Positions 17,586 to 21,561 of a stretch of 64,000 nucleotides of DNA are shown piece after piece. The number at the start of each line of letters is the position of its first letter. The stretch's first letter is position 1. Below the pieces are notes generated by a model, which was not told the origin of the DNA, made no database searches, and saw nothing but the letters and a program-made list of their open reading frames with translations. The position numbers and the translations under genes were made by a program. This DNA is from Mycolicibacterium monacense (GTDB taxonomy: Bacteria; Actinomycetota; Actinomycetes; Mycobacteriales; Mycobacteriaceae): assembly GCF_010731575.1 (NCBI RefSeq), contig NZ_AP022617.1, forward strand, positions 4,092,001 to 4,156,000, read 5' to 3'.

Positions 17586-17613
17586 TGTCGATTTTCCGGG
17601 GGTGCCGTTCGAC
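17586..17613 (+). promoter_or_regulatory. Candidate ECF42 sigma-factor promoter of YCII gene
   Basis: TGTCGA (17586-17591) and CGAC (17610-17613) with an 18-base spacer match the -35 TGTCGA / -10 CGA(T/C) motif that, from memory of ECF42 work in Streptomyces, precedes genes for DGPF (YCII) proteins. The gene downstream is a DGPF protein, starting about 57 bases after the -10. The cognate sigma gene at 20311 is disrupted. Confidence 0.55.
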
Positions 17614-17669: not shown

Positions 17670-18137
17670 ATGGCGCGTTACATGCTGATCATGCGGGTCG
17701 GGCCGGAGGCCGAGGCGGCCATGGCCGAACAGGAGATCGACTTCGACCAGGTCATCGAATCGATGGGCCGCTTCAACGAGGAACTCATCAAGGCCGGGGT
17801 GCTGCTGGCCGGGGAGGGTCTCACCGGTCCCGAGGAGGGTTTCGTCGTCGACTTCAACTCCGATCCACCGGTGGTGACCGACGGTCCGTACACCGAGGCC
17901 AAGGAGCTGTTCAACGGGTTCTGGATCCTCGACGTGTCCTCGAAGGAGGAGGCGAAACAGTGGGCGAAGAAGGTGCCGCTGGGGCCCGGAGTGAAGCTCG
18001 AGGTGCGGCGGGTGTCGGAGACAGAGGAGTTCCCGCAGGACAATCCGTGGGTCCAGAAGGAGATCCGGTGGAAGGCCGAACTCGCCGAGAAGCTCGCGGC
18101 GCAGGCGCGGGCCGATGCCGACAAACTGGGTCAGTAG
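17670..18137 (+). CDS. YCII-related DGPF-domain protein
   Basis: 155 aa from ATG at 17670 with AGAAGGAG ribosome site. Ferredoxin-like YCII fold: MARYMLIMRVGPEAE at the start and the family signature VVTDGPYTEAKELFNGFWIL, followed by a charged C-terminal helix. DGPF proteins are the usual targets and genomic partners of ECF42 sigma factors; biochemical role unknown. Here the sigma gene lies 2.2 kb downstream behind fadD8. The 3' end overlaps the convergent DUF3253 gene by seven bases. Confidence 0.85.
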   Translation: MARYMLIMRVGPEAEAAMAEQEIDFDQVIESMGRFNEELIKAGVLLAGEGLTGPEEGFVVDFNSDPPVVTDGPYTEAKELFNGFWILDVSSKEEAKQWAKKVPLGPGVKLEVRRVSETEEFPQDNPWVQKEIRWKAELAEKLAAQARADADKLGQ

Positions 18138-18394
18138 TCGTCCCTGGCGCGGATCCGGACGGGTCCGCGCCAGGCCGCGTCGGGATCGAGTACTTCGCCC
18201 CTCTGGGTGATCTCCACCTCGCCGGCCCTGGCCAGCTCGCGGGCGGCGTCACGCGCTCCGTCCATGAGCTCACGCCAGCGGTCTCCCCCGACGGCCCGTG
18301 CCGCGTCGGACGGGCAGATGGTCTTGGCCGGGCCGCGTTCGCGCGCCATTCGTAGGATCGTCGCCCGCAGCTCATCGCCGTCGGCTGGGACCAT
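18131..18394 (-). CDS. DUF3253 protein
   Basis: 87 aa from ATG at 18394 with GGGAGGCGCC ribosome site; the open frame continues upstream without coding character. Winged-helix-like small protein: LRATILRMARERGPAKTICPSDAARAVGG, then WRELMDGARDAARELARAGEVEITQRGEVLDP. DUF3253 proteins are small and uncharacterised, possibly nucleic-acid binding from the wHTH pattern (inference). Convergent with the YCII gene; about 210 bases separate it from the fadD8 promoter. Confidence 0.72.
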   Translation of the reverse strand: MVPADGDELRATILRMARERGPAKTICPSDAARAVGGDRWRELMDGARDAARELARAGEVEITQRGEVLDPDAAWRGPVRIRARDDY

Positions 18395-18605
18395 GGCGCC
18401 TCCCGGCATCGTCGTCCGGCAAAGCCTACGGGCACCACCCTGGGCTGGTGATCGTCGGCGGTCTGCCGCCCCAGGTGCGCGAACGTTTCGGCATTCGTGG
18501 ACCCGCGTCGTTGAAGTGGTACCCGGCCGCCCGCGCCGGGTGGTTGCGCGAACAGGGCCGCGCCCCGGCCCGGTTCTGAAATCGCGGGGACCGGCTGACT
18601 GGAAT

Positions 18606-18623
18606 TGGAACACGTTCTAGTCT
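18606..18623 (+). promoter_or_regulatory. KstR-type operator overlapping fadD8 -10 box
   Basis: TGGAACACGTTCTA (18606-18619) fits the KstR consensus TnnAACnnGTTnnA exactly. It overlaps TAGTCT (18618-18623), a -10 box ending eight bases before the fadD8 ATG. No ribosome site is visible, so the transcript is probably leaderless. A repressor bound here would block transcription until a cholesterol-derived CoA thioester releases it, as known for KstR. Confidence 0.65.
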
Positions 18624-18630
18624 GTTGGCC

Positions 18631-20229
18631 ATGAGTGATCAGCTGCGGCATTTCCTGCACTCCGGCCACCTGACGGTCGGCGCACTGAAGCGCCACAAGG
18701 ACCGGCCGGTGCTCTTCCTGGGCGACACCACGATGACCGGCGGTGAGCTCGCCGACCGCATCAGCCAGTACATCCAGGCGTTCGAGGCGCTCGGCGCGGG
18801 TACGGGCGCGGCCGTCGGCCTGCTCTCGCTCAACCGGCCCGAGGTGCTGATGATCATCGGCGCCGGCCAGACGCAGGGCTACCGCCGCACCGCACTACAC
18901 CCTCTAGGCTCGCTGGACGATCACGCCTACGTGCTGTCCGACGCCGGGGTGACGTCGCTGATCATCGATCCCAACCCGATGTTCGTCGAGCGGGCGCTGG
19001 GCCTGCTGGAGAAGGTTCCGTCGCTCAAGCAGGTCCTCACGATTGGCCCGGTCCCGGAGGAGTTGTCCGAGGTCGCGGTCGATCTGAGCGCCGAGGCGGC
19101 CAAATACCCGGCCAAACCCCTGGTGGCCGCGGATCTGCCGCCCGACCACATCGGCGGGCTGACCTACACCGGCGGCACCACCGGCAAACCCAAGGGCGTC
19201 ATCGGCACGACCCAGTCGATCACCACCATGACGACCGTCCAACTGGCCGAATGGGAGTGGCCGGAGAACCCGCGGTTCCTGATGTGCACGCCGCTGTCGC
19301 ACGCCGGTGCGGCGTTCTTCACCCCGGTCATCGTCAAGGGCGGCGAGCTGATCGTGCTGACGAAGTTCGACCCGGCCGAGGTGCTGCGCGTCATCGAGGA
19401 GCAGAAGATCACCGCGACGATGCTCGTGCCGTCGATGATCTACGCGCTGATGGACCACCCGGATTCGCACACCCGCGACCTGTCGTCGCTGGAGACGGTG
19501 TACTACGGCGCCTCGGCGATGAACCCGGTGCGCCTGAAGGAGGCGATCCGGCGGTTCGGCCCGATCTTCGCGCAGTACTACGGCCAGTCCGAGGCGCCGA
19601 TGGTGATCACCTACCTGTCGAAGAAGGAGCACGACGACAAGCGGCTGACGTCATGTGGCCGCCCGACGCTCTTCGCGCGGGTGGCGCTGCTCGGCGAGGA
19701 CGGGCAGCCGGTCCCGCAGGGCGAGGTCGGGGAGATCTGTGTCTCCGGTCCGCTGCTGTCGGGCGGCTACTGGAACCTGCCCGACGCGACGGCCGAGACC
19801 TTCCGGGACGGCTGGATGCACACCGGTGACCTGGCCCGCGAGGACGAGGACGGCTTCTACTTCATCGTCGACCGCACCAAGGACATGATCGTCACCGGCG
19901 GCTTCAACGTCTTCCCGCGCGAGGTGGAGGACGTCGTCGCCGAACATCCCCTGGTCGCGCAGGTGTGCGTGATCGGCACCCCCGACGAGAAGTGGGGTGA
20001 GGCCGTCACGGCCGTGGTGGTGCTGCGGCCCGACGCCGACTCCTCCGGAGAGGCCGTGGCGACGATGACCGCCGAGATCCAGGCGGCAGTCAAGGAGCGC
20101 AAGGGCTCGGTGCACGTGCCCAAGCAGGTGGTCGTCGCCGAGTCGGTGCCGATCACCGCGCTGGGCAAGCCCGACAAGAAGGCGGTGCGGGCGCAGTTCT
20201 GGGAGGGCGCAGGGCGAGCCGTCGGCTGA
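18631..20229 (+). CDS. fadD8: FadD8-like acyl-CoA synthetase
   Basis: 532 aa from ATG at 18631; a TTG six bases earlier is not needed. ANL superfamily: YTGGTTGKPKG phosphate loop near 177, YGQSEAPM (A5), WMHTGDLA (A7), DRTKDMIVTGGFNVFPREVE (A8), and a C-terminal catalytic lysine in ALGKPDKKAVR. The N-terminal sequence (GHLTVGALKRHKDRPVLFLGD) and its divergent position beside the amidohydrolase match Rv0551c (fadD8) from memory. A KstR-type site overlaps its promoter, suggesting a sterol or sterol-side-chain acid as substrate class (inference). Followed by a strong hairpin. Confidence 0.85.
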   Translation: MSDQLRHFLHSGHLTVGALKRHKDRPVLFLGDTTMTGGELADRISQYIQAFEALGAGTGAAVGLLSLNRPEVLMIIGAGQTQGYRRTALHPLGSLDDHAYVLSDAGVTSLIIDPNPMFVERALGLLEKVPSLKQVLTIGPVPEELSEVAVDLSAEAAKYPAKPLVAADLPPDHIGGLTYTGGTTGKPKGVIGTTQSITTMTTVQLAEWEWPENPRFLMCTPLSHAGAAFFTPVIVKGGELIVLTKFDPAEVLRVIEEQKITATMLVPSMIYALMDHPDSHTRDLSSLETVYYGASAMNPVRLKEAIRRFGPIFAQYYGQSEAPMVITYLSKKEHDDKRLTSCGRPTLFARVALLGEDGQPVPQGEVGEICVSGPLLSGGYWNLPDATAETFRDGWMHTGDLAREDEDGFYFIVDRTKDMIVTGGFNVFPREVEDVVAEHPLVAQVCVIGTPDEKWGEAVTAVVVLRPDADSSGEAVATMTAEIQAAVKERKGSVHVPKQVVVAESVPITALGKPDKKAVRAQFWEGAGRAVG

Positions 20230-20239
20230 TTCTCATCCG

Positions 20240-20297
20240 CGAGCAGACGCAAATGCTCCGCCTCGACGGCGTGTCGCGGGACATTTGCGTCTGCTCG
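20240..20297 (+). terminator. 16-bp-stem hairpin after fadD8
   Basis: CGAGCAGACGCAAATG (20240-20255) and CATTTGCGTCTGCTCG (20282-20297) are perfect complements with a 26-base loop, 10 bases after the fadD8 stop and 13 bases before the sigma gene. No U tract; a factor-assisted terminator or a dispersed palindromic element. Confidence 0.5.
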
Positions 20298-20310
20298 GCA
20301 GAATGGGCCC

Positions 20311-21561
20311 GTGGTTTCTGACATCCAGCAGACCGTCGACGCGGTGTGGCGGATGGAGGCCGCCAAGATCGTCGCCACGCTCACCCGCACCGTCGGCGAC
20401 GTCGGCTTGGCCGAGGATCTCGCCGCCGACGCCCTCGTCGACGCCCTCACCCAGTGGCCGTCGACCGGCGTGCCGAACAACCCGGGCGCCTGGCTGACCA
20501 CCGTCGCCAAACGCAAGGCGATCGACCACTGGCGGCGGCGCGACAACCTCGACGCGAAGTACACCGAACTGGCCCGCGACCTCGAAACCCACCTCGACGA
20601 ACCCGCCTGGGACCCCGACCACATCGACGACGACATCCTGCGGCTCATCTTCATCGCGGCCCACCCGGTGCTGTCGCGGTAGAACCAGATCGCGCTGACC
20701 CTTCGCGTCATCGGCGGCCTGACCACCGAGGAGATCGCCAGGGCCTTCCTGACGCCGAAAGCCACGGTGGCCCAACGCATCGTGCGGGCCAAGAAGACGC
20801 TGGCCGACGCAGAGGTCCCGTTCGAGGTGCCGCCCCGCGAGCAGTACCCGCAACGCCTGTCGGCGGTGTTGAGCGTCATCTACCTCATCTACAACGAGGG
20901 GTATTCGGCGTCCTCCGGGCAGCGTTGGATCCGCGACGAACTGTGCCGCGAGGCGCTGCGCCTGGGCCGCGTCCTCGCCGCGCTGGTGCCCGACGAACCC
21001 GAGGCCCACGGGCTGGTGGCGCTGATGGAACTGCAGAGCTCGCGGTTCGCGGCCCGTACCGACGACGCGGGCCGCCCGATCCTGCTCGAGGACCAGGACC
21101 GGACGAAATGGGACCGCGCCCAGATCGGCCGGGGCGTCGCGGCGCTGCGGCGTGCGGCGGCGGCCATCGACCGGCGAGGCACCGGGTGGGGCCCGTACGC
21201 GCTGCAGGCCGCGCTCGCCGAATGCCACGCCACCGCACCGTCGACCGCCGAGACCGACTGGCGGCGCATCGTGACCATCTACGACGCGCTGCTGCAGATC
21301 ACGCCCTCGGCCGTCGTCGAACTCAACCGCGCCGTGGCCGTCGCGATGGCCGACGGGGCCGCCGCCGCGCTCGAGATCGTCGACGGGATCACCGGGCTCG
21401 CCGACTCCTATCTATTGCCCAGCGTGCGCGGCGAACTGCTGGCCCGCCTGGGCCGCGCCGACGAGGCCGCCGCTCAGTTCGACCGGGCCGCCGCACTCGC
21501 CGACAACGAGCGCGAACGAGACGTGTTGTCCGACAAAGCCGCCCGGGTACGCCAGAGGTGA
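20311..21561 (+). pseudogene. ECF42-type sigma factor gene interrupted by an in-frame TAG
   Basis: A single frame of 417 codons encodes an ECF sigma factor with C-terminal TPR-like extension (DUF6596), except that codon 124 (20680-20682) is TAG. Before it: sigma region 2 (VGLAEDLAADALVDALTQW, NPGAWLTTVAKRKAIDHWRR). After it: region 4 (LTLRVIGGLTTEEIARAFLTPKATVAQRIVRAKK) and the extension (PPREQYPQRLSAVLSVIYLIYNEGY, then helical repeats). Relatives usually read HPxLSxEA here, so a GAG to TAG change fits. The stop separates the two sigma regions; neither half alone should work. Flanking codons look under normal selection, so the change is recent, or a sequencing error. Confidence 0.8.

What the first reader, a model, noticed from the sequence alone, without database searches (positions are those of the whole stretch)
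20311..21561. ECF42 sigma factor gene killed by one TAG while its target promoter survives
Codon 124 of an otherwise intact 417-codon ECF42/TPR-type sigma gene is TAG, between sigma regions 2 and 4. Relatives usually have Glu there (LSxEA), so GAG to TAG is the simplest cause. The DGPF/YCII gene at 17670 keeps a TGTCGA-n18-CGAC promoter of the ECF42 type (recalled motif). Either the regulon is silenced, another sigma factor drives it, or TAG is read through or internally restarted.
Basis: partly seen in the sequence, partly recalled or inferred. Interest (0 to 1): 0.72.

Follow-up and report, generated by a model that had tools for sequence, protein, structure and literature searches.

The report
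Strain-level break in ECF42 sigma gene
One mycobacterial strain carries a stop codon inside a gene-switch protein (an ECF42 sigma factor) that near-identical strains keep intact, while the conserved promoter that the protein most likely serves is still there: mostly an ordinary broken allele, but in a genome with three parallel switches whose promoters differ.

Summary
The TAG (20680-20682) is in the given sequence and splits an ECF42-type sigma gene. All 50 mycobacterial orthologues examined are open there, and so are seven near-identical proteins on unnamed contigs. The break is therefore young and strain-level, or a base-call error; it is not an old pseudogene. By Pfam the TAG lies inside sigma region 4 (residues 113-164), not between regions 2 and 4; the first in-frame restart (GTG 20767) keeps about a quarter of region 4. 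None of 46 tRNAs has anticodon CTA.

Two open ECF42 paralogues exist, each beside its own YCII gene, but their promoters carry CGTC, not CGAC (18 of 18 motifs against 50 of 50). Substitution is possible but not expected to be full.

Best reading: a recent null allele of a one-promoter sigma/YCII module. A second broken allele of the gene (apparent 16-bp duplication) exists.

The parts
20311..20679 (+). upstream piece of the sigma gene (123 codons): sigma region 2 plus the first 11 residues of the region-4 match
   Evidence: region limits from near-identical allele P0002
20680..20682 (+). in-frame TAG, codon 124, inside sigma region 4
   Evidence: sense codon in 50 of 50 mycobacterial orthologues and in 7 of 7 near-identical alleles (sequences, compared)
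20683..21561 (+). downstream piece: rest of region 4, DUF6596 and C-terminal extension, ending in TGA
20767..21561 (+). 264-codon restart frame (GTG), also held as a predicted protein; keeps residues 153-164 of the region-4 match 113-164
   Evidence: (P0001, 2 contigs)
20299..20304 (+). CAGAAT, -10-like element 6 nt before GTG 20311; suggests a leaderless sigma mRNA not driven by the TGTCGA promoter (inference)
   Evidence: -10-like element before the start in 49 of 50 orthologues against 100 of 5000 random stretches, pattern widened after inspection; narrower pattern 36 of 50 against 10 of 5000; TANNNT rule from passages of PMC3898074
17586..17613 (+). ECF42-type promoter TGTCGA-n18-CGAC of the YCII gene
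17670..18137 (+). YCII/DGPF-family gene, presumed target
   Evidence: Pfam YCII; co-inherited with the sigma gene
18131..18613 (-). DUF3253 gene between target and sigma gene; matched in only part of the relatives
18625..20229 (+). AMP-binding (acyl-CoA-ligase-like) gene between YCII and sigma; a 27-residue remnant in G002
20240..20297 (+). 58-bp palindromic repeat in the spacer before the sigma gene

Best explanation
The window carries a recent, strain-level loss-of-function allele of an ECF42-type one-component sigma factor. In intact relatives the sigma gene appears to be transcribed from its own housekeeping-type -10 as a leaderless mRNA, and the C-terminal DUF6596/TPR-like extension gates the sigma core, which then opens essentially one promoter (TGTCGA-n17/18-CGAC) in front of a YCII gene. 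In this strain translation stops inside region 4, so no polypeptide has both region 2 and a complete region 4, and the YCII promoter has lost its proper sigma factor. Shown: TAG, intact alleles and orthologues, conserved promoter, co-inheritance, distinct paralogue promoters, no CTA tRNA. Inferred: that this sigma reads this promoter, that the allele is null, that the paralogues do not fully replace it, that the near-identical alleles are of the same species, and the gating by the extension (from review passages on other ECF42 proteins).
For: Sense codon in 50 of 50 mycobacterial loci. Near-identical alleles elsewhere: six distinct 416-residue proteins (P0002-P0007) on 9 unnamed contigs, and P0023; the window's downstream piece is identical to that of P0002 and its upstream piece differs at one residue. 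dN/dS of the pieces against IS-1742 and IS-1496 is 0.13-0.19, well below 1. TAG inside region 4; restart keeps 12 of 52 residues of it. No CTA anticodon in 46 of 46 tRNAs. Promoter in 39 of 40 YCII upstreams, none in sense controls; fuller motif once in the genome. Sigma orthologue (>=75%) in 9 of 36 other same-genus genomes, all 9 with the YCII orthologue (>=74%); the one extra YCII genome (G008, 70% complete) has its contig end inside the ligase gene.
Against: No RNA or protein data. No DNA of the near-identical alleles and no reads could be fetched, so a base-call error remains open. The dN/dS of the pieces lies at or above the upper end of the six neighbours compared (0.04-0.15), and the upstream piece gives 0.37 between IS-1742 and IS-1496, so the gene may be under weaker constraint than its neighbours. 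The -35 (TGTCGA) and much of the recognition helix are shared with two paralogues, so the promoter may still be used. IS-1496 has an open sigma gene but a changed -35 (TGTCTA), so loss at this module may matter little. TPR repeats are below Pfam's cut-off. In S. meliloti, overexpressed RpoE10 (ECF42) did not raise its adjacent YCII gene (PMC6180224 passages).
Confidence: 0.72

Rival explanations
1. Base-call or assembly error: the strain's gene is intact and the TAG exists only in the record.
For: Seven of seven near-identical alleles other than P0001 are open here; the rest of the frame shows no other stop.
Against: The assembly is a single contig of 6.04 Mb, completeness 100; the frame is kept on both sides; the 264-residue restart protein stands for 2 contigs, though these may be one assembly deposited twice; the window also differs from all seven alleles at residue 109, so it is a distinct allele unless that is an error too.
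Confidence: 0.17
2. The sigma gene is null but the YCII promoter is served by one of the two ECF42-type paralogues (G000:C1 1527296-1528492 or 5043989-5045164), so nothing is silenced. This is compatible with the null allele and its confidence is not exclusive of it.
For: Both paralogues have open frames and their YCII promoters share TGTCGA and nearly the same spacing; the -10 differs by one base (CGTC against CGAC); the region-4 recognition helix is similar. The recalled ECF42 consensus allows either base.
Against: CGAC in 50 of 50 group-A motifs and CGTC in 18 of 18 group-B and -C motifs points to separate specificities; spacer 18 in 38 of 50 for A, 17 in 18 of 18 for B and C; region-2 sequences differ.
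Confidence: 0.25
3. TAG is read through, or the two pieces work together, so sigma activity persists.
For: The frame below the TAG is intact and close to relatives.
Against: No CTA anticodon in 46 of 46 tRNAs; TAG is the ordinary end codon of this same gene in 20 of 50 orthologues; the intact look is explained by the youth of the allele; restart keeps 12 of 52 region-4 residues.
Confidence: 0.04

Closest known systems
ECF42 sigma factors of Streptomyces venezuelae (Sven_0747, Sven_4377, Sven_7131)
   Same: long C-terminal extension said to be essential, and YCII-type neighbour (passages of PMC8999054); promoter motif TGTCGA/CGA(T)C recalled
   Different: here broken by TAG; sigma gene parted from the YCII gene by other genes and with its own -10-like element; three modules with two kinds of -10 in one genome. 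The primary paper was not held
RpoE10 of Sinorhizobium meliloti (ECF42)
   Same: sigma gene downstream of a YCII gene, few targets (passages of PMC6180224)
   Different: overexpressed RpoE10 did not raise its adjacent YCII gene; the promoter sequences shown in that table hold TGTCGG, not TGTCGA
ECF-10 of Pseudomonas putida
   Same: named as an ECF42 member in the review passage
   Different: not compared here by sequence; its paper was not held
Paralogues B (5043989-5045164) and C (1527296-1528492) of the same genome
   Same: sigma region 2 and DUF6596 above cut-off, YCII neighbour, TGTCGA -35
   Different: open frames, directly after their YCII gene, -10 CGTC; 35-47% identical to the pieces; region 4 of C below Pfam's cut-off

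Membership tests
ECF42 sigma factors | sigma region 2 and region 4 | tested here: met
   Sigma70_r2 and Sigma70_r4_2 above cut-off in the near-identical allele P0002; the window's own copy is cut inside region 4
ECF42 sigma factors | C-terminal extension of about 200 residues | tested here: met
   residues 165-416 of P0002 lie beyond region 4, with DUF6596 at 182-283, E 3e-40; for the window piece
ECF42 sigma factors | TPR repeats in the extension | tested here: inconclusive
   TPR_2 match below the curated cut-off (E 0.02 in P0002); structure prediction unavailable
ECF42 sigma factors | YCII/DGPF gene in the neighbourhood | tested here: met
ECF42 sigma factors | promoter TGTCGA / CGA(T)C (motif recalled, not read in a paper) | tested here: met
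   39 of 40 orthologous YCII upstreams
ECF42 sigma factors | no anti-sigma gene beside it | tested here: met
   the six sequences scanned (both sigma pieces and four neighbours) give no anti-sigma family; further neighbours not scanned
ECF42 sigma factors | assignment by the ECF-group HMM | not testable with these tools
   no ECF-group models; of the NCBIfam families listed none reaches its cut-off (for P0011 and the upstream piece only the best 25 are listed)
ECF42 sigma factors | functional sigma factor in this strain | not testable with these tools
   would need RNA or protein data
old (decayed) pseudogene | further lesions or dN/dS near 1 | tested here: not met
   one stop only; dN/dS 0.13-0.19 against IS-1742 and IS-1496; downstream piece identical to that of P0002

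The most novel reading that the evidence does not exclude
Loss of this sigma factor is recurrent and perhaps favoured within the species. Two independent lesions of the same gene (TAG here; in P0023 an apparent 16-bp tandem duplication that replaces the last 44 native residues) are seen among eight distinct alleles, and a neighbour (IS-1496) has a changed -35 at the same promoter. The three-module genome (one -35, two kinds of -10, one YCII gene each) would then be a natural knock-out for testing how ECF42 paralogues are kept apart by the -10 element.
Probability: 0.2. Interest if true: 0.5.

Novelty: new member of a known kind. Interest (0 to 1): 0.36.

Why it matters
As a broken gene it is ordinary. 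What is useful is the context: a sigma factor with what looks like a single conserved promoter, a natural null allele of it, near-identical intact alleles for comparison, and two paralogous modules whose promoters keep the -35 but differ consistently at the -10. That makes promoter insulation among ECF42 paralogues directly testable. No study of this in mycobacteria stood out in the listings of the searches made here; the library lacks most subscription journals.

Tried and rejected
Old pseudogene: rejected (one lesion, near-identical intact alleles). Natural amber suppressor: rejected as far as 46 tRNAs show. Functional restart: disfavoured. The bare pattern as evidence: rejected, since TGTCGA-n15-20-CGACY occurs 217 times in the genome against 62 for the reversed pattern. 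NCBIfam gave no group name. Structure prediction of an intact orthologue never finished. Two papers on ECF42 proteins (PMC6182237, PMC4135749) were not held; what is said of them comes from review passages. A search for print on the 58-bp repeat found one paper, whose title and abstract are unrelated. The labels HAD aside, gene names such as amidohydrolase, second ligase, nitroreductase-like and ECH are my own labels from recall and come from no call.

Full report
What is there. The given sequence has TAG at 20680-20682, in frame in a 417-codon stretch 20311-21561. The upstream piece matches Sigma70_r2 and the downstream piece DUF6596. In the near-identical protein P0002 the region-4 match covers residues 113-164, so codon 124 is inside region 4. 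The first ATG/GTG/TTG frame after the stop begins at GTG 20767, residue 153; a product from there keeps 12 of the 52 region-4 residues.

Host. The genome is one contig of 6,042,466 bases. The best named matches to the restart piece are Mycobacterium sp. IS-1742 and IS-1496 (90%) and M. doricum (90%). No tool names the species itself. Because the genus holds a listed germ, the broken gene was handled as separate pieces.

Orthologues and alleles. L034-L083, 50 loci titled Mycobacterium, Mycolicibacterium or Mycobacteriaceae (some of them metagenome bins, and L064 titled only Actinomycetota), were studied; the 30 others were left out. All 50 are open from the start of the match through the site to near the end of the gene, with a sense codon there. 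The order YCII - (DUF3253) - ligase - sigma - HAD - nitroreductase-like - ECH recurs in most, with gaps where contigs or the 6-kb flanks end or genes have moved. In the protein set (8000 best candidates scored, 120 listed) the 264-residue restart frame stands for 2 contigs, one of them the window's own; six distinct 416-residue alleles with 99-100% identity over the query stand for 9 contigs; and a 427-residue allele P0023 (100% over 83% of the query) for one. Against P0002 the window differs at residue 109 and at the stop only; P0003-P0007 each differ from the window at one further residue. P0023 agrees with the native frame to residue 372, then continues in another frame from a point 16 bases further back, as a 16-bp tandem duplication would give. 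A search with the 123-residue upstream piece (139 hits, best 120 listed) found no identical free-standing protein; P0147, 85 residues, is 98% identical over 69% of it.

Age. dN/dS of the two pieces against IS-1742 and IS-1496 is 0.13-0.19; the six neighbouring genes compared give 0.04-0.15, so the pieces lie at or above the neighbours' upper end. Against PS03-16 the pieces give 0.15 and 0.25, within the neighbours' 0.12-0.37. Between IS-1742 and IS-1496 the pieces give 0.37 and 0.17 (all). All values are well below 1: the gene was constrained, if perhaps less than its neighbours. The intact look of the downstream frame is therefore no sign of read-through. The 46 tRNA matches include none with anticodon CTA, and 20 of 50 orthologues themselves end in TAG (27 in TGA, 3 in TAA).

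Promoter. TGTCGA-n18-CGAC lies at 17586-17613. By itself it is weak evidence. Across relatives it is strong: 39 of 40 YCII upstreams, beginning at -81 to -107, against 0 in the sense upstreams of the sigma gene (50), ligase (46), HAD (44), ECH (43), nitroreductase-like (43), amidohydrolase (33), second ligase (46) and DUF3253 (18) genes. Antisense hits: 22 of 33 for the divergent amidohydrolase, which most likely are the same sites seen from the other side, 2 of 46 for the second ligase and 1 of 50 for the sigma gene. The exception among the 40, IS-1496, reads TGTCTA at the -35. TGTCGATTN{8,13}CGTTCGAC occurs once in the whole genome and its reversed control not at all; weaker targets could be missed by so strict a pattern. 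In a wider set of 61 loci, 9 show no YCII match; of the other 52, 50 have the motif, and the two without are IS-1496 and L079, whose locus holds only 38 bases upstream. Some genomes occur twice in that set and the window is one of them.

Paralogues. The genome has three DUF6596 genes and five YCII genes, three of which lie near them. Upstream of the other two modules' YCII genes TGTCGA-n17-CGTC is conserved: 10 of 10 loci for B and 8 of 9 for C, own genome included, L167 without it; the pattern allowed CGAC and CGTC alike. The broken gene's group has CGAC in 50 of 50 motifs. In consensus sequences the region-4 recognition helix is alike in the three groups and region 2 is less so. I infer that the -35 is shared and the -10 sets the modules apart. 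Cross-use remains possible.

Module. In the same genus, 9 of 36 other genomes have the sigma orthologue and all nine have the YCII orthologue; G008 has the YCII orthologue, but its contig ends inside the ligase gene. In G002 (4.0 Mb; its contig length equals that given for the M. doricum protein) the ligase is a 27-residue remnant, the amidohydrolase is cut and HAD is not found within the 1.5 kb held downstream, yet YCII (94%) and an open sigma gene (87-89%) remain, about 120 nt apart. A -10-like element just before the sigma start codon is found in 49 of 50 orthologues against 100 of 5000 random stretches, with a pattern widened after inspection; the narrower pattern gave 36 of 50 against 10 of 5000, and strict TANNNT 9 of 50 against 78 of 5000. 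With the TANNNT rule of PMC3898074 (passages seen) this suggests a leaderless sigma mRNA made by the housekeeping sigma.

Mechanism. From passages of PMC8999054 and PMC9023288, ECF42 proteins need their C-terminal extension for activity, and a protein partner is proposed to act through it; PMC8999054 suggests a role for the YCII protein. PMC8103513 (passage) names the TPR extension. In this strain neither piece can supply a sigma factor with region 2 and a complete region 4, so the YCII promoter has most likely lost its proper sigma. Whether the YCII gene is silent is not shown.

Verdict. A recent null allele (or, less likely, a base-call error) of a conserved, apparently one-promoter ECF42 module; an ordinary kind of event in an informative setting.

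Noticed in passing
window 20240-20297; L236-L243: A palindromic repeat, 58 bp in most of the copies listed (57-59), with arms CGAGCAGACRCAAA and inner arms that differ but largely stay complementary: 21 of 61 genomes, all in the window's genus (1 of 22 genera), 13 copies in the own genome, 41 in G006 (list of places capped). One paper holds the 13-mer GAGCAGACGCAAA, by title and abstract unrelated.
   Followed up: partly
L035 spacer before 5545: In IS-1496 the same spacer holds tandem GTCGGCTGAGCCGAC repeats instead of the palindrome.
   Followed up: no
L035, upstream of 3030: IS-1496 has an open sigma gene but TGTCTA instead of TGTCGA at the YCII promoter.
   Followed up: partly
L244 1312-4066 (G020): Another ECF42-type paralogue in a same-genus genome, after a gene with two YCII-like halves, is split: regions 2 and 4 on one side, a partial DUF6596 on the other, with about 1.5 kb between that holds a transposase-like frame (transposase and double YCII judged by eye).
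   Followed up: partly
G000:C1:4173612 and 2956363: Two further YCII genes of the genome; none of the three DUF6596 genes lies near them.
   Followed up: no
P0147: An 85-residue protein 98% identical to part of the upstream piece on a 1464-base contig; contig end or a third lesion, not decided.
   Followed up: no
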